Shown: positions 8,993 to 21,433 of the stretch, piece after piece
Layout of the letters: each line of letters opens with the position of its first letter
Position numbering within the stretch: position 1 is the stretch's first letter
DNA from: Lentzea alba
Lineage (GTDB): Bacteria; Actinomycetota; Actinomycetes; Mycobacteriales; Pseudonocardiaceae
Length of the DNA: 64,000 bases
NCBI RefSeq assembly: GCF_011067745.1
Contig: NZ_JAAMPJ010000001.1
Location: forward strand, 854,829 to 918,828
Direction of reading: 5' to 3'
Notes under the pieces: model-generated
What the model saw: the letters and a program-made list of their open reading frames with translations, nothing else
Databases searched by the model: none
What the model was told of the DNA's origin: nothing
Position numbers and translations under genes: made by a program

Positions 8993-9133
8993 CTAGTCCT
9001 GCGGCCAGTCTTCGGCCGCGGGGACGCTGACCGGTGTCTCGTCGACGCCGGTCAGCTCCTGGTGCTCCGCCTCGCCGGTCAGCCCGAGCGCGCGGTGCTT
9101 TTGTTCCTCGCTGGCACCGAACATGAAGCACAT
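8993..9133 (-). CDS. Small acidic 46-residue protein, probably leaderless
   Basis: A short frame begins MCFMFGASEEQKHRALG and ends AAEDWPQD. It has no recognised family. Support comes from a TAGCGT element (complement of 9141-9146) exactly 7 nt before the ATG with no ribosome-binding site, the same leaderless layout found at many starts in this window. Third-position GC is also high. It stops 11 nt before the Tat protein start, so the two could share a transcript. Confidence 0.45.
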   Translation of the reverse strand: MCFMFGASEEQKHRALGLTGEAEHQELTGVDETPVSVPAAEDWPQD

Positions 9134-9225
9134 GCCGTTGACGCTAGGCGCGCCCGCCGGAGCTTGGCTTCTCGATTCCTGCTCGCTGTCGGCACGCCGA
9201 TGCCGAGCCGGGCACGAAATTTGCA

Positions 9226-9241
9226 CGCGCACGCGTGCGCG
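9226..9241. promoter_or_regulatory. 16-bp perfect palindrome upstream of the DUF2252 gene
   Basis: CGCGCACGCGTGCGCG is an uninterrupted perfect palindrome 54 bp before the DUF2252 start, just after a locally A/T-rich GAAATTTG. It could be a dimeric repressor site. In such GC-rich DNA a chance CG-rich palindrome is not excluded. The rest of 9134-9295 shows nothing else I can name. Confidence 0.3.
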
Positions 9242-9295
9242 CAGGCATCCTCGTGCTGGGATGTGCGTCCGCAGGCCGGAGACAGGGAGGCTGCC

Positions 9296-10606
9296 ATGAC
9301 CGATCGCGGCGACCGCATCGTGAGCGTGCTCGAGGAAGCGTTCTCCGGGCTGATGGCGGCCGACCCCGCCGCGTTCCGGCACAAGTTCCGCAAGATGGCG
9401 GCCGAACCGTTCGCGTTCTACCGGGGCAGCGCCTGCCTGTTCTACGCCGACATGGCCGAGCTGCCGGACGAGTGGGCCGACGACCGCACCGGCCGCATCT
9501 GGATCCAGGGCGACCTGCACGCGCAGAACTTCGGCACCTACATGGACGCCGAGGGCACGCTGGTGTTCGACGTCAACGACTTCGACGAGGCCTACCTCGG
9601 CTCGTTCACCTGGGACGTCCGCCGCTTCGCCGCCTCCATGGCCCTGCTCGGCTGGCGCAAGGCGTTGCCGGACGGCGTGATCACCGACCTGATCCGCACC
9701 TACGTCACCTCCTATGTGGCCCAGATCCGCGCGTTCGTCACGCGACCGGACGACTCGCTGTTCAGCCTGCGTCTCGACAACACCGAGGGAGCCCTGCACC
9801 GCGTCCTGCAACGCGCCCGTCTGGAGACCCGCATCGGCCTGCTGAACGACAAGACCGCCATCGTCAACTACGAACGCCGCTTCCGCCGCGACCGCGAAGG
9901 CACCCACGAACTGGCGCCCGAGGTCCTGGCCGCGGTCCTGCGGGCCTTCGAGTCCTATCTGGACACGATCCCGACCGGCAAACGGGCCAGCAGCCGCACC
10001 TACGCCGTCAAGGACGTGGTGGGCCGCAGCGGTTTCGGCATCGGCTCGGCCGGCCTGCACGCCTACAACATCCTCGTGGAGGGCCGCTCCCAGGCGTTGG
10101 AAAACGATGTCGTCCTCTCGATGAAACAAGCGAACGTGGCAGCCCCCAGCCGAATCGTGCCCGACGCGCGGATCCGCTCGTACTTCACCGACCACGGCCA
10201 CCGCACCGCCGTCTCGCAGCGGGCCCTGCAGGCGCACGCCGACCCCTGGCTCGGGCACACGCAGATCGACGGGGTCGGGTACGTCGTCGCCGAGCTCTCG
10301 CCCTACGAGGCCGACCTGGACTGGTCCGACCTGACCGAGCCCGCGGACATGCTGCCGGTGCTCGACTACCTGGGGCGGGCGACGGCCAAGATGCACTGCG
10401 TGGCGGACGAGGACTCCGCGCAGACCCTCGTCGACTTCCAGTGCGAGGAGGCGATCGCCGCGGCCATCGGCGACCGCGAGGACGAGTTCGCCGACTCGAT
10501 CGTGGCGTTCGCGCTCGACTACGCACAGCAGACGCGGGAGGACCACCGGCTGTTCGTGGACGCGTTCCGGGAGGGCCGCATCAAGGGGGTCGGCTCGACC
10601 GCGTAG
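9296..10606 (+). CDS. DUF2252 family protein (kinase-like fold)
   Basis: ATG 9296 follows AGGGAGG by 6 nt, giving 436 residues. The sequence matches the DUF2252 layout: an N-terminal KFRKMAAEPFAFYRGSA, then WIQGDLHAQNFG and FDVNDFDEAYLG. The last two read like the catalytic HGDLHxxN and DxxD-type loops of aminoglycoside-phosphotransferase-like kinases. DUF2252 proteins are widespread in actinobacteria and their substrate is not established, so kinase activity is only suggested by these motifs. It stands alone between a divergent secreted-protein operon and a DsbA-like gene. Confidence 0.88.
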   Translation: MTDRGDRIVSVLEEAFSGLMAADPAAFRHKFRKMAAEPFAFYRGSACLFYADMAELPDEWADDRTGRIWIQGDLHAQNFGTYMDAEGTLVFDVNDFDEAYLGSFTWDVRRFAASMALLGWRKALPDGVITDLIRTYVTSYVAQIRAFVTRPDDSLFSLRLDNTEGALHRVLQRARLETRIGLLNDKTAIVNYERRFRRDREGTHELAPEVLAAVLRAFESYLDTIPTGKRASSRTYAVKDVVGRSGFGIGSAGLHAYNILVEGRSQALENDVVLSMKQANVAAPSRIVPDARIRSYFTDHGHRTAVSQRALQAHADPWLGHTQIDGVGYVVAELSPYEADLDWSDLTEPADMLPVLDYLGRATAKMHCVADEDSAQTLVDFQCEEAIAAAIGDREDEFADSIVAFALDYAQQTREDHRLFVDAFREGRIKGVGSTA

Positions 10607-10659: not shown

Positions 10660-11259
10660 GTGAAGCTCGTCTACGTCTTCGACGCCTACTGCGGCTGGTC
10701 GCACGCCTTCTCCGGCACGCTGGAGACGGTCATCGCGCGCCACCCCGACCTGCCGGTCGAGGTGGTCTCCGGCGGTCTGTTCACCGGCGCGCGCCGGGTG
10801 CCGATCCGCGAGTACGGGTTCATCAGGGGCGCCAACGCCCAGATCACCGAACGGACCGGGGCGACGTTCGGCGAGGCCTTCGACGCGCTGCTCGCCGACG
10901 GGTCGTTCGTCATGGACTCCGAGGCCGCGGCGCGCGGGCTGATCGCGCTCCGCCAGGTCGCGCCGGACCGGGCGGCCGAGCTGGCCGTCGCGATGCAGAA
11001 GGCGTACTTCCACGACGGGTTGAGCCTGTCGAACGCGAAGACCTACCGGGTGATCGCCGACGCGTTCGGCCTCGACTCCGACGCGGTCGTGAGCGCGTTC
11101 AAGAACGCCGTGCCGGAGACCGACTTCGACCGGGCCGCCCAGCTCGGTGTGAGCAGCTACCCGACCTTGATCGCCGTGCGGGAGAACAAGGCGTTCGTGC
11201 TCGCACGTGGGCACGCCACCGCCGACGAGATCGAAGAGCGGCTGGCGCAGCTCCTCTGA
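10660..11259 (+). CDS. DsbA-family (COG3531-like) thioredoxin-fold protein with CxxS active site
   Basis: The 199-residue protein has the DsbA-like layout: first strand and active site VFDAYCGWSH, a helical insert, and a cis-Pro-like loop SSYPTLI near residue 170. The CGWS replaces the usual CxxC, so it cannot form the normal active-site disulfide and may act as a reductant-independent isomerase, glutathionyl-type enzyme or binding protein. No signal peptide is seen, so it should be cytoplasmic. GTG 10660 lacks a ribosome-binding site, but TACTTT lies at 10645-10650, 9 nt upstream, fitting a leaderless mRNA. Confidence 0.82.
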   Translation: MKLVYVFDAYCGWSHAFSGTLETVIARHPDLPVEVVSGGLFTGARRVPIREYGFIRGANAQITERTGATFGEAFDALLADGSFVMDSEAAARGLIALRQVAPDRAAELAVAMQKAYFHDGLSLSNAKTYRVIADAFGLDSDAVVSAFKNAVPETDFDRAAQLGVSSYPTLIAVRENKAFVLARGHATADEIEERLAQLL

Positions 11260-11260
11260 G

Positions 11261-12190
11261 TCAGCGGACGAGCCCGTGGTGGCGGTTCGTCCACGCGGCG
11301 ACGGCCGGCAGCACGTCGGTGATCCACTCGCGAGCGGCGGCGGTGAGCTCGTAGCGTCCCGCTCGGCGGAGCACGAAACCGTTGTCCTGCAAGCGCTCCA
11401 GCGTCATGATCACGCGCGGGCCGAGTGCGCTGATGAGTTCTTCGGCGCCCTTCGGGCCGTCGGACAGCGCGACCATGACGTGTGGCAACTGGTCGCTGCT
11501 CATCAGGTCCTGCAGCGCGATCAGGTGGTGCAGTGCCAGGACGTCGTTGTTGCGCTCGGTCGCGAACCCGCTCGGGTCGTGCACCTGGACGCGGGCCCTA
11601 CCGTTGCGCTTCGCCCGTTGCAGAGCCGCGTCGGTGTCGCGGACCAGGTCGATCAGCGTGTCCTCGCCGCCCGGCACGTGCGACGCCACGCCGATGGACG
11701 CGGTCTGGCCGTGCAGCGTGAGGCCGTAGCCGTCGTTCGTGGTGATGTCGCTCTGCAACGCACGGATACCGCGCAACATACGTTCGGCGACAACAGCCGC
11801 TTCACCGCCCGTGGTGCGAGGCAGCAGCACGAGGAACTCATCGCCGCCGTACCGGCACACGAGATCCGACGACCGTGTGTGTGCCTTCAGCACGTCGGCG
11901 ACATCGCTCAGCACGACGTCACCGGCCGGGTGGCCGTACTCGTCGTTGATCTTCTTGAAGCGGTCGAGGTCGATCATGAGCAGCGCCACCTGCTCCCACC
12001 GGCGCTGGGCACGGCGGTACGCCGCGGGTGCCTGGTCGTCCCAGCCCCACCGGCCGAGCAGGCCGGTCAAGCGGTCTGTCGTCCACGCACCAACCGGTTG
12101 CGCGCAGGAACCACAGCGCGAGGGAGCGCTCTCGTCGTGCAAGCGCAGAGAACCACGGTTCACCGGAAGCCCCGTCCGCGCAGTCGTCAT
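11261..12190 (-). CDS. Diguanylate cyclase (GGDEF) fused to an HxlR-like winged helix
   Basis: The 309-residue protein starts at ATG 12190 behind GGGGGGA. Residues 38-205 are a GGDEF domain: the catalytic loop RYGGDEF at 113-119, the substrate helix FKKINDEYGHPAGD, and an allosteric I-site RSSD at 106-109. It should therefore make cyclic di-GMP and be product-inhibited. Residues 215-309 look like an HxlR/MarR winged helix (VALSDGPKGAEELISALG, then RLQDNGFVLRR and YELTAAAREW), a DNA-binding module not normally attached to GGDEF. A CGSC pair lies at 26-29. No membrane segment is seen. It converges on the DsbA-like gene with 1 nt between stops. Confidence 0.88.
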   Translation of the reverse strand: MTTARTGLPVNRGSLRLHDESAPSRCGSCAQPVGAWTTDRLTGLLGRWGWDDQAPAAYRRAQRRWEQVALLMIDLDRFKKINDEYGHPAGDVVLSDVADVLKAHTRSSDLVCRYGGDEFLVLLPRTTGGEAAVVAERMLRGIRALQSDITTNDGYGLTLHGQTASIGVASHVPGGEDTLIDLVRDTDAALQRAKRNGRARVQVHDPSGFATERNNDVLALHHLIALQDLMSSDQLPHVMVALSDGPKGAEELISALGPRVIMTLERLQDNGFVLRRAGRYELTAAAREWITDVLPAVAAWTNRHHGLVR

Positions 12191-12268
12191 GAGTCCCCCC
12201 AGACTTCAGCTCTGACTGGCCCGATCTGCCCGCTTCAACTCAAGTGACGTCGTTCGGATCAAATGCGA

Positions 12269-12366
12269 CACATCAGTTGAAGCGACGGAGTGTGATCATA
12301 GGGCGACACACAGGTGGATTCAACCCCTGTGATGCCATATGCTCTTCGGGTTCCACATCAGTGGAA
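12269..12366. promoter_or_regulatory. Paired 13-mer operator candidates for the EspR-like regulator
   Basis: CACATCAGTTGAA at 12269-12281 recurs as CACATCAGTGGAA at 12354-12366, one mismatch and 85 bp apart. The second copy lies inside a perfect inverted repeat TTCCAC-ATCA-GTGGAA (12351-12366). They occupy the divergent gap between the GGDEF gene and the four-gene operon. EspR-type proteins bind distant sites and loop DNA, so two spaced copies fit autoregulation. This is inference. Confidence 0.45.
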
Positions 12367-12404: not shown

Positions 12405-13112
12405 GTGAGGCCGTTCGCCGAAGTGCTCAACGAGCTGTGCAACAACCCGCCGGGCGGCGGAGGCAAGGTGACCAACGTAGCGCTCGCGGCGGCGGTCAAG
12501 GCTCGGGGTGGCGACATCGGGCACGGCTACATCTCGCAGCTTCGGCTGGGGGTGAAGGACAACCCGACGTGCCAGGCCATCGTCGACCTCGCCGGCGCGC
12601 TCGGCGTGCACCCCGCGGTGTTCCTCGGCGGTCGCGGCCGGCTGCACCCCGGTGAGCAGCCCGGCTGGCGCGCCACCGCGTTGAGCACGCTCTTCGAGGC
12701 CGTGCACCCGCCGGACCGCGGGCCGTGGTCACCGGAGGAGGTCGCGACCGCGATCAGCTCGTCCGGCCAGTTCGGCAGCATCTCCGCCAGCTACATCCGC
12801 GAACTGCTGAGCAACACCAGCGACAACCCGCGGCTCAAGCACATCCTCGGCCTGGCCGACCACTTCGGCGCCGACCCCGCGTACTTCTTCGACGACGACC
12901 TCGCGGCGCGGGTCGATTCGGAGCTGACCGACTTCCTGGCACTGCGCGAGCTCGGCGTGGTCGAGTTCGTCACCCGTCTGGCCGAACGTACGGGCGAACT
13001 GTCCCCGCAGGCCAGGGCCGCTGCGGTAGAAGGGTTCCGGCAGGCGCTCGAAGTCGGCGAGGGTTGGTCGTTCCCACTGAACGCCCGCCGTACATCCGCG
13101 GACCACACTTGA
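12405..13112 (+). CDS. Tandem EspR-like helix-turn-helix regulator
   Basis: GTG 12405 follows GGAGG by 6 nt, giving 235 residues. Two EspR-like units follow each other. The first (about 1-85) has KVTNVALAAAVKARG and GYISQLRLGVKDNPT; the second (about 88-215) has LFEAVHPPDRGPWSPEEV, SYIRELLSNTSDNPRLKHI and YFFDDDLAARVDSEL. Mycobacterial EspR has one such unit plus a dimerisation helix, so this is a duplicated version. It heads a compact operon with an ImmA/IrrE-like protease, a pairing that often means the protease inactivates the regulator. The ORF upstream of 12405 has no ribosome-binding site. Confidence 0.87.
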   Translation: MRPFAEVLNELCNNPPGGGGKVTNVALAAAVKARGGDIGHGYISQLRLGVKDNPTCQAIVDLAGALGVHPAVFLGGRGRLHPGEQPGWRATALSTLFEAVHPPDRGPWSPEEVATAISSSGQFGSISASYIRELLSNTSDNPRLKHILGLADHFGADPAYFFDDDLAARVDSELTDFLALRELGVVEFVTRLAERTGELSPQARAAAVEGFRQALEVGEGWSFPLNARRTSADHT

Positions 13113-13176
13113 TGACGACGACGGCGTGAAGATCTCAGCCTGGACCGCTCCAGCCGACATCGAGAGGAGGCGACGG

Positions 13177-13734
13177 GTGAACCGCAGGAAACTGCGCAAG
13201 CTGGTCGACGAGGTCGCCCGGGACCTCGACCTGCCGCCCGACGCCACGCACCGGGACGCGAGCCGGCGGGTCTGCGAGCTCATGAGCGAACGGCTCGGGC
13301 GTCCCGTCGACGTCCGTTTCGCCGCCATCACGAACGCGGTCTGCCTCAGCGGCGCGACGGCGTTGCTCGAGAACGGCACGTATCTCGTCATCTGCGCGGA
13401 CTCCCCGTCCTGGTACCACCGCCTGCACGTGCTGCTGCACGAGTTCGCGCACGTGTTGCTGCAGCACCAGCCCGTGGCGCTCGGACGCAGCGAAGGCATG
13501 CGCAAGCTCGCACCGCACCTGTTGCCGCGCATGGCGCAGATCATCGCGGGCCGGACCACGCTGACCGAGGACGAGGAACGCGAAGCCGAGAACCTCGCCG
13601 ACCACCTGCTGGAGCGCCTGACCGAACACCGGGTGTGGGCCGACACCGCGGCCACCGAGGAGCCGGCGCACGTGCGGCGGGTGGCCGAATCTCTCGAAGG
13701 AAGATCTCGCTGGGTGCGTCGTGGCGATCTTTAA
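13177..13734 (+). CDS. ImmA/IrrE-like zinc metalloprotease
   Basis: GTG 13177 follows GAGGAGG by 6 nt and gives 185 residues; the frame is open further upstream to 13126 but without such a site. The zinc motif HEFAH (H88, E89, H92) sits in LLHEFAHVLL. A downstream EREAENLADHLL could supply the third ligand, as in COG2856 proteases. ImmA/IrrE proteins typically cleave a partner HTH repressor in response to a signal, and here the HTH gene lies 64 nt upstream. The 3' end overlaps the membrane-protein gene by 14 nt. No signal peptide is seen, so it is cytoplasmic. Confidence 0.83.
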   Translation: MNRRKLRKLVDEVARDLDLPPDATHRDASRRVCELMSERLGRPVDVRFAAITNAVCLSGATALLENGTYLVICADSPSWYHRLHVLLHEFAHVLLQHQPVALGRSEGMRKLAPHLLPRMAQIIAGRTTLTEDEEREAENLADHLLERLTEHRVWADTAATEEPAHVRRVAESLEGRSRWVRRGDL

Positions 13735-14929
13735 CCTGATCTACCTCTCGTGCGGCATCGTCGGACTGCTCCTCCTCGCGTACAAGATCCGCGCGTTGCG
13801 GTCGAGCTGGGGCAGTCCCCGGGTCGTCGCGCTGATCTCCACCGTCTTCTTCTCGGCGTTCGCCGTGCTCTTCGCGGCCCCCGCGAACATCACCTGGATC
13901 AACTGGACCAGCGGCGTGCCGAACTTCGCCGCGCTGGTCGTGTACAGCCTGGTGGTCTGCTTCGCCGGTTCGGCGTTCGCGCTGGTGCTGTACTGGCGCT
14001 ACCCGGCCGCTCAGGCGTGGCAACGGGTCCGGCTGATCGTCGTCAGCTACGCCTCGATCGTCGCCGCGATGATCGTGCTGTTCTTCAAGTCCGAGGTCGG
14101 CGAAGAGCGTCAGGTCGACTTCGACACCTACTACGCCACCCAACCGACGATCGCGGTCTTCCTGTTCATCTACTTCGTCGCGACCATGATCGGCTGCGCC
14201 GGTCAGGCCTACCACTGCTGGCAGGGTTCGCGGGACGAGGCGATCTCCGCCCGGCCGTGGCTTCGGCTCGGGCTGCGCTGGTACTGCGCGGCGGCGCTGT
14301 TCCCGATGGCGTTCGCGGTCATCAAGCTGTTCGTGCTGCTGATGGACTGGGCCGGTGAGCGCAGCTTCGACGTGCTGAGCACGACCGCGCCGTTGATGGC
14401 GTCGCTGTCGATGATCCCGCTGGTGATCGCGATGGCCCTGCCGGTCTTCGGACCGCGCCGGCCGTCGCCGTCGCTGTGGCTGCGGCGCTGGCGGACGTAC
14501 TTCGCGCTGCGGCCGCTGCACCGGGCGTTGGTGCACGTGAACCCCGGCATCGTGCTGGTGGCGCCGGGCAAGTTCCTCAACCCGCACCACCGCGTGCGCC
14601 GGCAGATCATCGAGCTCAACGACTGGCGGTGGGCGCTCACGCCGTACTTCGACCTGTCCGTCGGCGAGGCCGCGACTTCGCTCGCGCGCAAGGCCTCCCT
14701 GACCAAGGACGAGGTCGCCGCCGTCGTGGAGGCCGCTCAGCTGCGTGCCGCCGGTTCGTCCAGCGGGCGGCCGCGGGCTCCCAAGCGCCGTCCCGTCGCG
14801 GAGATCGTCGACGGCACGGACCTCTCCGTCGAGCACGACAGATGGGTGCGGATCTCGCGTGCGTACCAGCACTCGCCGATAGTCGACGCGGCCGTCACGC
14901 ACGTGCACGCAGCAGGAGGAACGGATTAG
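13721..14929 (+). CDS. DUF6545 (MAB_1171c-like) seven-helix membrane protein
   Basis: The first 240 residues contain seven hydrophobic helices, beginning at the GTG start (AIFNLIYLSCGIVGLLLL). The rest is a soluble cytoplasmic part of about 160 residues rich in Arg, with PLHRALVHVNPGI and RRQIIELNDWRWAL. This matches the proteins annotated as MAB_1171c-like putative transporters (DUF6545); transport has not been shown to my knowledge, and the layout also fits a receptor. The start overlaps the protease gene, and the stop TAG 14927-14929 directly abuts the ATG of the flavoprotein, so the genes are translationally coupled. Confidence 0.83.
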   Translation: MAIFNLIYLSCGIVGLLLLAYKIRALRSSWGSPRVVALISTVFFSAFAVLFAAPANITWINWTSGVPNFAALVVYSLVVCFAGSAFALVLYWRYPAAQAWQRVRLIVVSYASIVAAMIVLFFKSEVGEERQVDFDTYYATQPTIAVFLFIYFVATMIGCAGQAYHCWQGSRDEAISARPWLRLGLRWYCAAALFPMAFAVIKLFVLLMDWAGERSFDVLSTTAPLMASLSMIPLVIAMALPVFGPRRPSPSLWLRRWRTYFALRPLHRALVHVNPGIVLVAPGKFLNPHHRVRRQIIELNDWRWALTPYFDLSVGEAATSLARKASLTKDEVAAVVEAAQLRAAGSSSGRPRAPKRRPVAEIVDGTDLSVEHDRWVRISRAYQHSPIVDAAVTHVHAAGGTD

Positions 14930-16306
14930 ATGGCACCCACACACGCCGTAGTCCTGGGCGGCGGGCTCGCGGGCATGCTCACCGCGTCCGTCCTCGTCAA
15001 GCACGTGGACGAGGTCACCGTCGTGGAACGCGACAAGCTGCCGGACGGCCCCGAGTCCCGGTCCGGCGTGCCTCAGGCCCGGCACGCGCACCTGCTGATG
15101 TCCGGTGGCGCGCGGGCGATCGAGTCGTTGCTGCCGGGGACGCTGGACGCGTTGTTCGCGGCCGGCGCGCACCGGATCGGGGTGCCGAACGACCTGGTGT
15201 CGTTGAGCGCTCAGGGCTGGGTGCCGCGGTTTCCCGAGATGCAGTTCATCGTGACGTGCAGTCGCGGGCTGCTGGACTACGTCGTGCGGTCGCAGGCGTT
15301 GCGGGACAGCAAGATCTCGCTGCTGACCGGGACGGAACCGGTGTCGTTGCTCGGCTCGGCGGAGGCGGTGGCCGGGGTGCTGGTCGAGGACCGGATCTCG
15401 CGCGAGCAGATCTCGCTGGAGGCGGACCTGGTCGTCGACGCGACCGGGCGCGGTTCGCGGTTGCCGGCGTGGCTGACGTCGTTCGGGCTGCCCGAGGTGC
15501 ACTCGGAGAGCGTCGACTCCGGACTCGCCTACGCCACCCGGATCTTCCAGGCGCCCGCGTCGGCCGCCGCCGACTTCCCGATCGTCAACGTGCAGGCGAA
15601 CCCGCGTGACCCGCACCCCGGCTGCACGGCGACCCTGCTGCCCATCGAGGACGGGAAGTGGCTGGTCACTCTGTCCGGCACGCGCGGTGGTGAGCCGTCG
15701 ACCGACGAGTCGGAGTTCGTCTCGTTCGCCCGGTCGGTGCGCAACCCGGTCGTGGGTGACCTGATCGCCTCCGCCGAGCCGTTGTCGCCGGTGTACGGGT
15801 CGCACAGCACCGCGAACCGGCGGATGTTCTTCGAGCGCTTGAAGTCCTGGCCGACCGGGTTGCTCGCGCTGGGCGACTCGGTGGCGACCTACAACCCCGT
15901 CTACGGGCACGGGATGTCCATCGCCGCGCAGAGTGCCCAGGCCCTGGATGCCGGGTTGCATGCCGGGCACGGTGCGCAGCAGATCCAGCGCGCGATCGGC
16001 AAGGTGGTCGACGGGGCCTGGGCGATGGCGACCAACCAGGACATCCTCTATCCGGGTGCGGTCGGCAAGCCGTTGCCGTTGGCGGGGCGGGTGTTGCAGC
16101 GCTATGTGGACCGTTTGGTGCGCACGGCGACCACCGAGGCCGAGGTGACCCGCGCCTTCCTGGACGCGTTCACGTTGTCGGCACCGATGGCGAACCTGGT
16201 CAGCCCCAAGGTGATGTGGGCGACCATGCGCGGGCCCCGGAGCGAGGTGTCGCCGGAGCCCACGCTGACCGCGGACGAGCGGGAGCGCGTCACGTCCGCG
16301 GAGTGA
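14930..16306 (+). CDS. FAD-dependent monooxygenase/oxidoreductase of the four-gene module
   Basis: The 458-residue protein starts at ATG 14930 behind AGGAGGAA. It has an N-terminal Rossmann dinucleotide motif (VVLGGGLAGMLTASVL), an Arg-rich PQARHAHLL region and a second FAD segment LLALGDSVATYNPVYGHGM, the GD box of the p-hydroxybenzoate-hydroxylase group. The substrate is unknown. It is the last gene of the operon with the EspR-like regulator, protease and membrane protein, so it may be the response enzyme of that pathway. Its last 17 nt overlap the 3' end of the convergent VOC gene. Confidence 0.87.
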   Translation: MAPTHAVVLGGGLAGMLTASVLVKHVDEVTVVERDKLPDGPESRSGVPQARHAHLLMSGGARAIESLLPGTLDALFAAGAHRIGVPNDLVSLSAQGWVPRFPEMQFIVTCSRGLLDYVVRSQALRDSKISLLTGTEPVSLLGSAEAVAGVLVEDRISREQISLEADLVVDATGRGSRLPAWLTSFGLPEVHSESVDSGLAYATRIFQAPASAAADFPIVNVQANPRDPHPGCTATLLPIEDGKWLVTLSGTRGGEPSTDESEFVSFARSVRNPVVGDLIASAEPLSPVYGSHSTANRRMFFERLKSWPTGLLALGDSVATYNPVYGHGMSIAAQSAQALDAGLHAGHGAQQIQRAIGKVVDGAWAMATNQDILYPGAVGKPLPLAGRVLQRYVDRLVRTATTEAEVTRAFLDAFTLSAPMANLVSPKVMWATMRGPRSEVSPEPTLTADERERVTSAE

Positions 16307-18442: not shown

Positions 18443-21433
18443 ATGGAAATCGAGCCCGGAACACCGCTGGCAAACGCGATCAAAGCCGCGCAGGCCGCTG
18501 CCCGACGCGGCGACGTGCACGGGATCGACCACTACTACCGGGAGGCCGCGAAGGTCACCTGGATCATCGCCCACGACCACTGCGCCACCCTGCTCGCCCA
18601 CGGCGCGATCGCGAAGGCCGCCCGGCGCTGCGACGAGTACCTGGCTCAGAGCAACGACATCGAACTGAGAGTCCTCCGGGCTCAGATCCGCAGTGCCGCA
18701 ACGGATCACGCGAGCGCCGTCCAGGACGTCCGGGAGCTGCGGAAGCTGAAGCTCACCGAACTGCAGCAGGCCGTGCTCGCTCGGGTGGCCGCGCTGGCCG
18801 CCGCCGACCACTTCGATTTCCCCACCGCGGAAAGCGAGCTGGACGCCGCCGAACGGCACTTCCGCCGCGCCGGGCACACCGAGCACCTGGAACACGTCGG
18901 CGACGACCGGGTGCTGCTCGACGTGCGCCGCGGCACCCACGTGCCGAAGATCGACGGCCCGGCCCCGCGTACCCCGGCCGAGTACCTGCGACAGGCTTCG
19001 GCGCTGCGCCGGGAAGTCCGGTACACCGAAGCGCTGGCGCTGATGACCAGGTGCGCCACCAGCTTCGAGATCGAGCCCTCCCTGCGGTTCGCCGTCCTCC
19101 ACGAGCTGACCGTCCTGCTGGTGATGACCCGGCAGGCGGGCGCGGCCCGCAGGTTGTTCCCGCTGCTCGTCGCCATGGCGGGGCCGGAGGTGTTGTCGAA
19201 GCTCCCGGACGCCACCCAGACGCTCACCCCGGAACGTTGCCTCGACCGCGTCCGCCGGCTGATCGCGGACGACCAGCTGATCACCGCGGAAAGCTTGCTG
19301 GGGCAGGGTAACTCCGCGCTGTGGCACCTCACGAAGGCCGAGCTCACCTACGCCAACGGACACTTCGGCCAGGCCGCGCTCCACTTCCGCGAAGCCGCCC
19401 GCACGAACCACGCCGAGCTGAAAGCGTTGGCACTGCGCAAACTCGGCGACACCTGCGCCGACACCGGCGCCGAAGACGAAGCCTCCCAGCTCTGGACCGC
19501 GGCTCGACACGTCGAAGAAATCCTGCCCCACCACCAGGACGCCGAGCTCCGGATGCTGAGCGTCGCCAGGGACGAGCACGACCACCGGGTGTTCGCCGCG
19601 GCCCGCCGTGTCCAGCGCGATGGCAGGAAAGCGTTGGCGGGACTGGTGGTCGCGGTCGAGGCTGCCAGAACCGCCACGCACGACCTCCCCGGCTTCACCG
19701 ACCTGCCGGCCGCCAGGCGCTGGCTCCGCACGACGACGAGACTCCTGCCGCGCGACCAGGTGGTGTGGCTGATGCATCCCACCCCGGACCAGATCCACCA
19801 CGTGATCATCGGCCGCGGCACGACCCACCTGACGACCGGCGTCCACATCAGCGAGCTCACCGCCACGATCCACCGGCTCACGGCGTGGAATCCCAGGCAC
19901 AGCCCGGCGATCTTCGGCACCCTGCTCGCCGAGCTGGCCACCCTGATCGGCCTGGACGACGTGCTCGCCGCCCTGCCACCGAAGACCACGAGGATCGTCG
20001 TCGTGGCGGGCGGCGTCCTCGCGGACATCCCGTTCGCCGGTCTGCCCGTCCCAGGCGCCCACCACTTCCTCGGCCTCACGCACGCGCTGTCCAGCCTGCC
20101 GAGCCTGTCCGCCCTACCCGTGCTCCACCGCCGCTCCCGCAAGCAGAGAAGCGACGAGACCGTCACCTTCCGGGAGGCGGCCGAACTCGAACGAGCCTTG
20201 AAAGAGCAACACCGCCAACGCATCCGGATCGACGCCCAGAACACGCACGATCGGCTGAACGCCGACCGGTCCTGGCTGAAGTTCAGCGACGAACAGATGA
20301 CCGCGGAAACGTGGGCAAGCCTGGACTTCGGCAGGTGCGGCACGGTCGTGCTCGGCCGCGACGACCAGGCCGGCTTCGCCCGCGCGGCCATCACCGCCGG
20401 CGCGGGAGCGGTCGTGGCGGCCCGCTGGAAGCCCGAGGACGAGACCGCGCGGAAGGTGCTCGACGCGTTCGACCGCAACCTGGCCAAACTCCCCCGCGAC
20501 CGTGCGCTGCAACACGCGCTGAAAGAGGTCGCGGACCGGCACCCGGCTGACTGGGCGTGCTGGTCCCTGCACGGCGACGCGGGATTCCAGACCACAGCCG
20601 GCCCGCTGCGCAGACGACTCAGGAAGAACGGAGAACCCGTGCCGCTCGAAACCCGTCCCAAGGTGTTCCTGTCGTTCGCCGGCAAGGACCGCCCGCACGC
20701 CGAGCAACTCCGCGCCGAACTGGAGTCGCGCAGCGTCAACGCCTTCCTCGACGAGAACGAGATCGCGCCCGGTGCCAACGTCGTCAACGCCGTCAACGAG
20801 GCGTTGGCGACCTCCGACTACTACGTCCTGCTCTGGTCGGCGAACACCCCGCAACGCGAGTGGATCACCGACGAGTGGGCCGCCGCGTTCAACCTGGAGA
20901 TGACGCGCCGCCGCGCCTTCCTGTTCATCGTGCGGCTGGACGAGGAACCGCTGCCGCCTCTGCTCGCACCGCGCAAGCACGTCGACCTGGTGCACGCCGC
21001 CGATCGCCTGATCGCGACCTGGCGCGCCGACCGCAAGTCCGAACTCCCGGTGTTCCCCCAGCCCATGCCTCCCACGCCGGACGGCCCGACCGTCGCGATC
21101 TCGGTGCGCAGCCACGACCTCGGCGTCACGCACGTCGTCATGGCCCCGCTGCACCTGACCGGCGCCACCCTGCACCGGGCGGTGTTCGACGCGTTGCAGC
21201 TGCCGACCGAGCAGGCCGCGTTCGACGGCACGATCGGGATGCGGTTCTCCTACGAGCTGTCCCAGCAGAACCAGCCGATCCCGGCCGATCAGTCCACTGT
21301 GGACCTCAAGTCCGGGGTGGTCGACATCGCGGTCCGCGTCGAGTCGTTCGTGCCGAAGAGCAAGGACGACGGCCTCGACGTGGACCAGCAACGCATGTTG
21401 CTGGTCGCCGCCTTCCGCCATCTCTTGCCCTGA
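18443..21433 (+). CDS. TPR - degenerate CHAT - TIR multidomain protein
   Basis: Residues 1-420 of this 996-residue protein are helical TPR-like repeats. Residues 434-715 follow the CHAT (caspase-like) layout, ending with GAGAVVAARWKPEDETARKV and WACWSLHGD. However, the segment that is normally LSACET reads LGRDDQ (637-642), so the catalytic cysteine is replaced by D640; a candidate His remains at H602. Residues 735-860 are a TIR domain (KVFLSFAGKDRPHAEQL) that keeps the putative NADase glutamate E811 in WITDEW. Residues 880-996 may be a ubiquitin-like beta-grasp. I infer that a dead CHAT acts as sensor or scaffold and the TIR as NAD-depleting effector, as in anti-phage abortive systems. No partner is obvious. 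GGGGA precedes ATG 18443. Confidence 0.85.
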   Translation: MEIEPGTPLANAIKAAQAAARRGDVHGIDHYYREAAKVTWIIAHDHCATLLAHGAIAKAARRCDEYLAQSNDIELRVLRAQIRSAATDHASAVQDVRELRKLKLTELQQAVLARVAALAAADHFDFPTAESELDAAERHFRRAGHTEHLEHVGDDRVLLDVRRGTHVPKIDGPAPRTPAEYLRQASALRREVRYTEALALMTRCATSFEIEPSLRFAVLHELTVLLVMTRQAGAARRLFPLLVAMAGPEVLSKLPDATQTLTPERCLDRVRRLIADDQLITAESLLGQGNSALWHLTKAELTYANGHFGQAALHFREAARTNHAELKALALRKLGDTCADTGAEDEASQLWTAARHVEEILPHHQDAELRMLSVARDEHDHRVFAAARRVQRDGRKALAGLVVAVEAARTATHDLPGFTDLPAARRWLRTTTRLLPRDQVVWLMHPTPDQIHHVIIGRGTTHLTTGVHISELTATIHRLTAWNPRHSPAIFGTLLAELATLIGLDDVLAALPPKTTRIVVVAGGVLADIPFAGLPVPGAHHFLGLTHALSSLPSLSALPVLHRRSRKQRSDETVTFREAAELERALKEQHRQRIRIDAQNTHDRLNADRSWLKFSDEQMTAETWASLDFGRCGTVVLGRDDQAGFARAAITAGAGAVVAARWKPEDETARKVLDAFDRNLAKLPRDRALQHALKEVADRHPADWACWSLHGDAGFQTTAGPLRRRLRKNGEPVPLETRPKVFLSFAGKDRPHAEQLRAELESRSVNAFLDENEIAPGANVVNAVNEALATSDYYVLLWSANTPQREWITDEWAAAFNLEMTRRRAFLFIVRLDEEPLPPLLAPRKHVDLVHAADRLIATWRADRKSELPVFPQPMPPTPDGPTVAISVRSHDLGVTHVVMAPLHLTGATLHRAVFDALQLPTEQAAFDGTIGMRFSYELSQQNQPIPADQSTVDLKSGVVDIAVRVESFVPKSKDDGLDVDQQRMLLVAAFRHLLP

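What the first reader, a model, noticed from the sequence alone, without database searches (positions are those of the whole stretch)
12405..16306. Four-gene EspR-like / ImmA-like / DUF6545 / FAD-monooxygenase module
Four genes are packed with overlaps or zero gaps: duplicated EspR-like DNA-binding protein, HEFAH zinc protease, seven-helix membrane protein with a cytoplasmic domain, and a flavin enzyme. A membrane receptor, a protease that can cleave a repressor, the repressor and an enzyme make a complete signal chain. Similar neighbourhoods seem common in actinomycetes, yet I know of no described function.
Basis: partly seen in the sequence, partly recalled or inferred. Interest (0 to 1): 0.7.

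Follow-up and report, generated by a model that had tools for sequence, protein, structure and literature searches.

The report
Bacterial 7TM receptor–protease–repressor enzyme cassette
Many soil actinomycetes carry a compact gene set that looks like a complete chemical sensor: a membrane receptor with the same overall fold as animal GPCRs, a protease, a DNA-binding repressor with its own conserved DNA sites, and a swappable enzyme that modifies small molecules; no function has been described for it.

Summary
The four genes are real, on one strand and tightly packed; the membrane-protein gene is kept in 23 of 24 genomes of the genus (Lentzea). Three form a widespread actinomycete cassette: an EspR-like repressor, an ImmA-like zinc protease with invariant metal ligands, and a MAB_1171c/DUF6545 membrane protein. 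In 111 non-redundant loci the protease gene lies near the membrane gene in 89 and the repressor also in 74. The fourth gene is not constant. It is an interchangeable small-molecule enzyme: Lsd18/MonCI-type flavin epoxidase (as here), P450, TetX-like monooxygenase, amidohydrolase, amidase, PAP2 phosphatase, methyltransferase or F420-type reductase. The membrane domain is predicted with high confidence to have a GPCR-like 7TM fold (VIA Z 18.6; all top 50 matches GPCRs or GPCR-like; repeated on a distant relative). A conserved operator, TCAACTNNNNGTG, lies upstream of the repressor gene family-wide; here four copies in a fixed 35/50/35-bp array. Best explanation: a ligand-sensing, protease-triggered derepression switch, working like BlaR1–BlaI–BlaZ but with receptor and protease as separate proteins. 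The anatomy is shown; ligand, cleavage and enzyme substrate are inferred. I found no published function; the only phenotype found is for a M. abscessus MAB_1171c mutant.

The parts
12234..12247 (+). operator element 1, TTCAACTCAAGTGA
   Evidence: conserved in Lentzea orthologs; family-wide motif
12269..12281 (-). operator element 2 (inverted), TTCAACTGATGTG read on the - strand; 35 bp from element 1
12319..12332 (+). operator element 3, TTCAACCCCTGTGA; 50 bp from element 2
12354..12366 (-). operator element 4 (inverted), TTCCACTGATGTG read on the - strand; 35 bp from element 3
   Evidence: the inverted-pair pattern occurs at no other place in the 10.2-Mb genome
12405..13112 (+). EspR-like DNA-binding protein, 235 aa, two HTH/EspR units; predicted repressor
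13126..13734 (+). ImmA/IrrE-like (M78-like) zinc metalloprotease, HEFAH + E151; likelier start GTG at 13177
   Evidence: H105, E106, H109, E151 conserved in at least 99% of 180 relatives; start:
13721..14461 (+). GPCR-like 7TM domain (residues 1-247) of the MAB_1171c-family protein; predicted receptor
   Evidence: AF2 pLDDT 91; VIA Z 18.6 to a prostaglandin receptor, top 50 all GPCRs or GPCR-like; replicate
14477..14869 (+). cytoplasmic DUF6545 domain (residues 253-383); predicted output domain
   Evidence: PF20182 E 3e-30; most conserved part of the family
13721..14929 (+). whole MAB_1171c / DUF6545 family membrane protein, 402 aa
   Evidence: NF042915 178.5 bits, cut-off 100
14930..16306 (+). 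Lsd18/MonCI-type FAD-dependent epoxidase homolog, 458 aa; the exchangeable fourth gene
   Evidence: 477 bits to Lsd18/LasC, 421 to MonCI; FAD contacts R34 and H54 kept
11261..12190 (-). divergent GGDEF diguanylate cyclase, accessory neighbour sharing the operator region
   Evidence: Pfam GGDEF E 8e-41; GGDEF proteins are the HTH neighbour in 12 of 79 loci against about 1% of other genes

Best explanation
A self-regulated small-molecule response cassette. The 7TM membrane protein is a receptor that binds a (probably hydrophobic or lipid-like) small molecule. Its cytoplasmic DUF6545 domain then activates or releases the soluble ImmA-like zinc protease. The protease cleaves the EspR-like repressor, which otherwise sits on the paired operator elements just upstream. 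The operon is derepressed and the last gene makes an enzyme that chemically changes the inducing compound (here an Lsd18/MonCI-type epoxidase), so the response detoxifies, consumes or matures the compound and ends itself. The enzyme is exchanged between lineages while receptor, protease and repressor stay. Shown by sequence or prediction: gene set and order, zinc ligands, EspR relationship, operator motif, GPCR-like fold, enzyme exchange. Inferred: ligand binding, receptor-protease contact, repressor cleavage, direction of control, and that the enzyme acts on the ligand.
For: Triad conserved: protease directly upstream of the membrane gene on the same strand in 105 of 134 non-redundant loci, HTH nearby in 99; TM-anchored subset 74 of 111 with both. 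Protease ligands H105/E106/H109/E151 at least 99% conserved in 180 sequences, so activity is under selection. Receptor: GPCR-like 7TM fold, Z 18.6, rmsd 3.7 A over 243 residues, replicated on a Mycobacteroides-type member (Z 15.9); positive charges at the cytoplasmic ends give N-out/C-in (sequence); outer helix halves less conserved than inner (p 0.014); a basic residue inside TM6 (K202; K/R in 94 of 128 loci). Operator: motif learnt on half of the non-Lentzea loci is enriched upstream of the HTH genes of the other half (p about 1e-9; 41-47% above the 95% control quantile); strong-site density 1.68 per kb upstream of HTH against 0.061 in other intergenic DNA; four elements in fixed 35/50/35-bp spacing in nearly all Lentzea orthologs. 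Enzyme: 40 of about 48 same-strand next genes in the TM-anchored set fall in eight recurrent small-molecule enzyme classes, against 3 of 64 control genes in those classes; class follows receptor lineage (28 changes against 42.6 shuffled). Precedents: IrrE/PprI cleaves DdrO and CapP cleaves CapH (PMC10904395); BlaR1-BlaI (PMC9834060).
Against: No ligand, no cleavage, no interaction and no expression data. The membrane protein is annotated by NCBI as a putative transporter. 41 of 111 loci have an opposite-strand gene after the receptor, so the enzyme is not obligatory. Part of the loci lack a detectable HTH or protease nearby (17 of 111 lack both). EspR itself is a nucleoid-type regulator, so the HTH protein need not be a simple repressor. 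The GPCR-like match is of fold only; Foldseek E-values are weak (best 0.003). Enzyme classes were named after seeing them.
Confidence: 0.5

Rival explanations
1. Signal-making rather than signal-clearing: the enzyme completes synthesis of the ligand that the 7TM protein senses, giving a positive-feedback cell-cell signalling (autoregulator) loop, as with gamma-butyrolactone systems.
For: Epoxidase, P450, methyltransferase and PAP2 phosphatase are typical tailoring enzymes for isoprenoid or polyketide signals; Lsd18 also epoxidises farnesyl acetate (PMC12144862); the enzyme class follows the receptor lineage; the cassette is kept across the whole genus Lentzea.
Against: Amidohydrolase, amidase and TetX-like classes look degradative; no scaffold-building enzyme (PKS, terpene synthase) is regularly next to the cassette.
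Confidence: 0.2
2. The protease-repressor pair answers an intracellular signal such as DNA damage (like CapP/CapH or PprI/DdrO) and the 7TM protein is an effector or transporter, not the sensor; the module could be defence- or toxin-antitoxin-like, as the NCBI label 'toxin' for the protease suggests.
For: Weak PADLOC capH match to the HTH protein (E 3e-4); ssDNA activates PprI and CapP (PMC10904395); 'toxin' and 'putative transporter' annotations on plasmid copies.
Against: No PADLOC match to the other genes; no match in phage records; the genus-wide fixed locus and metabolic fourth genes do not look like a defence island; the GPCR-like fold and basic TM6 residue suggest a receptor.
Confidence: 0.15
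3. The triad is a real regulatory unit but the fourth gene is a passenger: enzymes are read through from the strong operon and exchanged neutrally; the true target of the repressor lies elsewhere.
For: Fourth gene absent or opposite in 41 of 111 loci; amidohydrolase and F420-reductase classes are scattered over the receptor tree.
Against: Strong excess of a few enzyme classes over control operon genes; 4-bp start/stop overlaps are the commonest spacing to the fourth gene; the operator pair occurs only at this locus in the window's genome.
Confidence: 0.15

Closest known systems
BlaR1-BlaI-BlaZ / MecR1-MecI (beta-lactam sensing; PMC9834060)
   Same: Membrane sensor, zinc metalloprotease, winged/HTH repressor on paired operators, and an enzyme that destroys the inducer, in one locus (architecture level).
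   Different: BlaR1 carries sensor and M56-type protease in one polypeptide with an external penicillin-binding domain; here a 7TM GPCR-like protein and a separate cytosolic M78-like protease. No shared sequence family.
ImmR-ImmA, DdrO-IrrE/PprI, CapH-CapP
   Same: HTH protein encoded next to an M78/ImmA-like metalloprotease; proteolytic derepression is shown in those systems.
   Different: Here the HTH protein is EspR-like and a membrane receptor-like gene and an enzyme gene are part of the operon; the protease scores below the Pfam M78 cut-off.
EspR (Mycobacterium tuberculosis)
   Same: Second half of the window HTH protein is a full-length EspR homolog (E 5e-12).
   Different: Window protein has an extra N-terminal HTH unit and is linked to a protease; EspR is a stand-alone nucleoid-associated regulator.
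MAB_1171c family putative transporter (NF042915) / DUF6545 (PF20182)
   Same: The membrane protein is a member (178.5 bits, cut-off 100).
   Different: Here a GPCR-like receptor fold is predicted; the 'transporter' name rests on annotation.
Lsd18/LasC and MonCI polyether epoxidases
   Same: Fourth gene is a close homolog (477 and 421 bits) with FAD contacts kept.
   Different: Not in a polyether cluster here; pocket residues differ (I72L, W74M, H239Q, V252T by alignment), so the substrate is probably different.
Eukaryotic GPCRs and microbial rhodopsins
   Same: 7TM helix arrangement, N-out/C-in.
   Different: About 10% identity, no sequence homology shown; no lysine in TM7 for retinal; output goes to a DUF6545 domain.

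Membership tests
MAB_1171c family (NF042915) | score above NCBI's curated cut-off of 100 bits over the full length | tested here: met
   178.5 bits, residues 11-382, profile 3-362 of 362
Peptidase_M78 / ImmA-IrrE | score above the Pfam gathering cut-off | tested here: not met
   16.6 bits against 22
Peptidase_M78 / ImmA-IrrE | HExxH motif plus a downstream glutamate ligand | tested here: met
   H105, E106, H109, E151 conserved in at least 99% of 180 relatives
Peptidase_M78 / ImmA-IrrE | cleavage of the partner HTH repressor | not testable with these tools
   needs protein work
EspR | sequence homology over HTH and C-terminal region | tested here: met
   residues 90-200 match 3qf3, E 5e-12
EspR | stand-alone nucleoid-associated DNA binding at many sites | not tested
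   only one inverted-pair operator locus found in the own genome; genome-wide binding needs ChIP
GPCR-like 7TM fold | seven helices packed as in GPCRs, covering the whole domain | tested here: met
   predicted structures only: Z 18.6, rmsd 3.7 A, 243 residues; all top 50 GPCRs or GPCR-like; replicate Z 15.9
GPCR superfamily (by descent) | significant sequence similarity to GPCRs | tested here: inconclusive
   6-16% identity in structural alignments; Foldseek E 0.003 at best
Microbial rhodopsin | retinal-binding lysine in TM7 | tested here: not met
   no lysine in residues 218-243 (sequence, helices)
Lsd18/MonCI-type epoxidase | full-length homology and conserved FAD contacts | tested here: met
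   477 bits over residues 5-456; GGGxAG, R34, H54 kept (residues from PMC12144862)
Lsd18/MonCI-type epoxidase | epoxidation of a polyene | not testable with these tools
   needs an enzyme assay
BlaR1-BlaI type system | sensor and M56 protease in one membrane protein | tested here: not met
   separate genes; the only apparent M78-7TM fusion (L261) is a frameshift
CapH-CapP (CBASS regulators) | located with CBASS genes | tested here: not met
   no PADLOC matches apart from a weak capH hit, E 3e-4

The most novel reading that the evidence does not exclude
Actinomycetes have evolved a large, diversified family of GPCR-like chemosensory receptors, up to seven or more per genome, each wired through a private ImmA-type protease and EspR-type repressor to its own metabolic enzyme: a bacterial counterpart of a chemoreceptor gene family whose output is proteolysis instead of G proteins.
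Probability: 0.3. Interest if true: 0.92.

Novelty: new variant of a known kind. Interest (0 to 1): 0.72.

Why it matters
If right, a protein family now labelled 'putative transporter' in thousands of actinomycete genomes is a receptor family, and the enzyme next to each copy gives a direct clue to what each receptor senses. That makes ligand discovery testable pair by pair, offers new inducible switches for Streptomyces engineering, and would be the first example known to me of a GPCR-like, non-retinal bacterial receptor acting through a metalloprotease. It also gives a hypothesis for the antibiotic-susceptibility and biofilm phenotype of the M. abscessus MAB_1171c mutant (PMC8707978).

Tried and rejected
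(1) Fixed four-family module: rejected; the fourth gene is one of at least eight enzyme classes. (2) Physical coupling by gene fusion: an apparent protease-7TM fusion in L261 (Streptomyces albireticuli) turned out to be a frameshift. (3) Defence system: PADLOC gave only a weak capH match; phage records no match. (4) Mobile element regulator (ImmA/ImmR-like): the locus is kept in 23 of 24 genus genomes at 80-96% identity with the same neighbours, so it is not a recent mobile element, though plasmid copies exist in Streptomyces. (5) Rhodopsin: no TM7 lysine. (6) L181 as proof of MAB_1171c context: the published MAB_1171c primers do not match it closely; only the family membership and a similar neighbourhood are shown. 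(7) Alignment-wide scan for the membrane gene in genome contigs failed because no stretch is conserved enough. (8) Literature searches for DUF6545, a bacterial GPCR-like receptor, or an EspR/metallopeptidase/monooxygenase operon found nothing relevant. (9) The DUF6545 domain was not folded alone, so nothing is said of its fold; a family missing from the fold lists is not excluded. (10) First operator search used a gap one base too short and found nothing; corrected.
Full report
1. Observation. The four genes are present as described, on the + strand of a 10.2-Mb, 69% GC genome. Loci with the closest relatives are named Lentzea, so the window is from Lentzea. The HTH protein (12405-13112) is two EspR-like units: its halves align (E 4e-9), and its second half matches solved EspR (E 5e-12). 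The next protein carries HEFAH and scores sub-threshold against Pfam M78. Its start is probably GTG 13177, not 13126, because AGAGGAGG lies just before 13177 and this is conserved in orthologs. The third protein is a full-length MAB_1171c-family/DUF6545 member. The fourth is a flavin enzyme whose best solved relatives are the polyether epoxidases Lsd18/LasC (477 bits) and MonCI (421 bits). The FAD contacts of Lsd18 are kept (R51 = R34, H71 = H54), while several substrate-pocket residues differ.

2. Distribution. The window-type membrane protein has an ortholog in 23 of 24 genus genomes (80-96% identity), with the same gene order in the 14 loci fetched (13 with the HTH gene called). The wider family is over cut-off in 167 of 249 genomes of the taxonomic family, often with seven or more copies (only seven candidates per genome were scored), in 41 of 297 of the class and in 9 of 296 of the phylum. 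In the own genome the membrane protein and the protease are single-copy. The flavin enzyme has three more distant paralogs at 33-39% identity, plus a weak fourth match.

3. Neighbourhood survey. I fetched 140 regions of about 13 kb, 80 named flavin-enzyme loci and 8 annotated plasmid loci. Genes were called with a simple GC-frame method and scored with profiles built from these loci. Of 134 membrane-protein loci under 75% identity, the protease is directly upstream on the same strand in 105 and the HTH lies within 4.5 kb in 99. In the 111 loci chosen through the membrane gene alone, 74 have both, 15 the protease only, 5 the HTH only and 17 neither. NCBI-annotated plasmid copies show the same order, with labels HTH / 'toxin' / MAB_1171c / cytochrome P450 or FAD monooxygenase. 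Conversely, close relatives of the window's flavin enzyme have the membrane gene immediately upstream in 57 of 78 called loci; in several others the enzyme is near PKS-like genes.

4. The fourth gene is an exchangeable enzyme. In the TM-anchored set the next same-strand gene is: Lsd18-type epoxidase 12, amidohydrolase 7, PAP2-like 6, TetX-like FAD monooxygenase 5, P450 4, F420-type reductase 2, methyltransferase 2, amidase 2, singletons 8 (Pfam). A control of 64 operon-downstream genes from the same loci shows no such pattern. In these classes it is about 40 of 48 against 3 of 64; the exact test used 40 of 47 and gave 2e-19. The classes were named after the fact. Treating the control the same way (families seen at least twice: MFS/sugar transporters, histidine kinases, methyltransferases, one arabinofuranosidase pair) gives roughly 10 of 64, so the contrast stays large. 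An alpha/beta hydrolase sits between HTH and protease in another clade. On the receptor tree the labels are clustered (28 changes, shuffled mean 42.6), but several classes arise more than once. Forty-one loci have an opposite-strand gene instead, so an enzyme is common but not obligatory.

5. The receptor. AlphaFold2 gives pLDDT 91 and pTM 0.80. A second look at Foldseek's matches with VIA-align gives only GPCRs or GPCR-like folds in the top 50: Z 18.6, rmsd 3.7 A, 243 residues to the PGF2-alpha receptor, and Z 15.8 at rank 50; one entry is a designed GPCR-like fold. A Mycobacteroides-type member at 16% identity gives again only GPCRs, Z 15.9 to 13.6. Foldseek alone is weak, so descent from or with GPCRs is not claimed. 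The loops after helices 1, 3, 5 and 7 are rich in Arg/Lys, which gives N-out/C-in. The cytoplasmic DUF6545 part is the most conserved. Outer helix halves are less conserved than inner ones (p 0.014), as expected for a variable ligand pocket. Helix 6 has a basic residue (K202) in 94 of 128 loci. There is no TM7 lysine, so it is not a rhodopsin.

6. The protease. H105, E106, H109 and E151 are conserved in at least 99% of 180 relatives, as are G76 and R143 at 98-100%. Catalytic metal binding is therefore very likely. Substrate is not shown.

7. The operator. Upstream of the HTH gene lie four 13-14-bp elements, alternately + and -, at 12234, 12269, 12319 and 12354. The 35/50/35-bp spacing is kept in nearly all Lentzea orthologs. 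The inverted pair occurs twice here and nowhere else in the genome. A related motif, (g)TCAACTNNNNGTg, is found upstream of HTH genes in other genera: a motif trained on half of 68 non-redundant loci separates the held-out half from control upstream regions (p about 1e-9 both ways; 41-47% above the 95% control quantile). Strong sites are 27 times denser there than in other intergenic DNA. Similar spacings (52/36, 52/34) recur in L231 and L123. This is good evidence that the HTH protein controls its own operon. It does not show repression versus activation.

8. Mechanism. The best-supported chain is: ligand binds the 7TM receptor; the DUF6545 domain switches on the protease; the EspR-like repressor is cut; the operon, including the enzyme, is expressed; the enzyme removes or converts the ligand. 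The precedents are proteolytic derepression by PprI/IrrE of DdrO and CapP of CapH (PMC10904395) and the BlaR1-BlaI logic (PMC9834060). I put about 0.5 on this chain with the enzyme acting on the ligand as inducer, 0.2 on signal synthesis, 0.15 on an intracellular (for example DNA-damage) trigger with the membrane protein as effector or transporter, and 0.15 on a passenger enzyme.

9. What is known. The library searched holds no paper on DUF6545 and one that names MAB_1171c: a M. abscessus transposon mutant with lower clarithromycin (0.5 against 2) and cefoxitin (4 against 16) MICs and about half the biofilm mass, interpreted there as a transporter (PMC8707978). This fits a regulator as well as a transporter. 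Subscription journals and preprints are not covered, so an earlier description cannot be excluded.

10. Verdict. Observation confirmed; interpretation partly supported and extended. The stable unit is receptor-protease-repressor-operator; the enzyme is a plug-in. New variant of a known kind (proteolytic derepression), with an unusual receptor.

Noticed in passing
window 11261-12190 (-): A GGDEF diguanylate cyclase gene divergent from the cassette shares the operator region; GGDEF proteins are the neighbour of the cassette's HTH gene in 12 of 79 loci against about 1% of other genes (Fisher p 1e-9). A c-di-GMP link to the cassette is possible.
   Followed up: partly
window 18443-21433 (+): A 996-aa protein with CHAT and TIR domains (Pfam CHAT 7e-13, TIR_2 5e-22), possibly a defence or cell-death protein.
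   Followed up: no
L118, L121, L122, L125, L126 (e.g. L122:4611-5444 +): An alpha/beta hydrolase gene is inserted between the HTH and protease genes of one clade of the cassette.
   Followed up: partly
L157, L163, L164, L174, L212: Streptomyces loci with two membrane-protein genes near each other, mostly in tandem, with Lsd18-type enzymes close by, perhaps a receptor dimer.
   Followed up: no
window 9062-10606 (+): DUF2252 protein next to a DsbA-like gene (10660-11259), upstream of the GGDEF gene.
   Followed up: no
L297, L303, L305: Lsd18-type enzymes without the cassette, directly downstream of a ~1825-aa ORF and a ~150-aa ORF, probably polyketide-type clusters.
   Followed up: no
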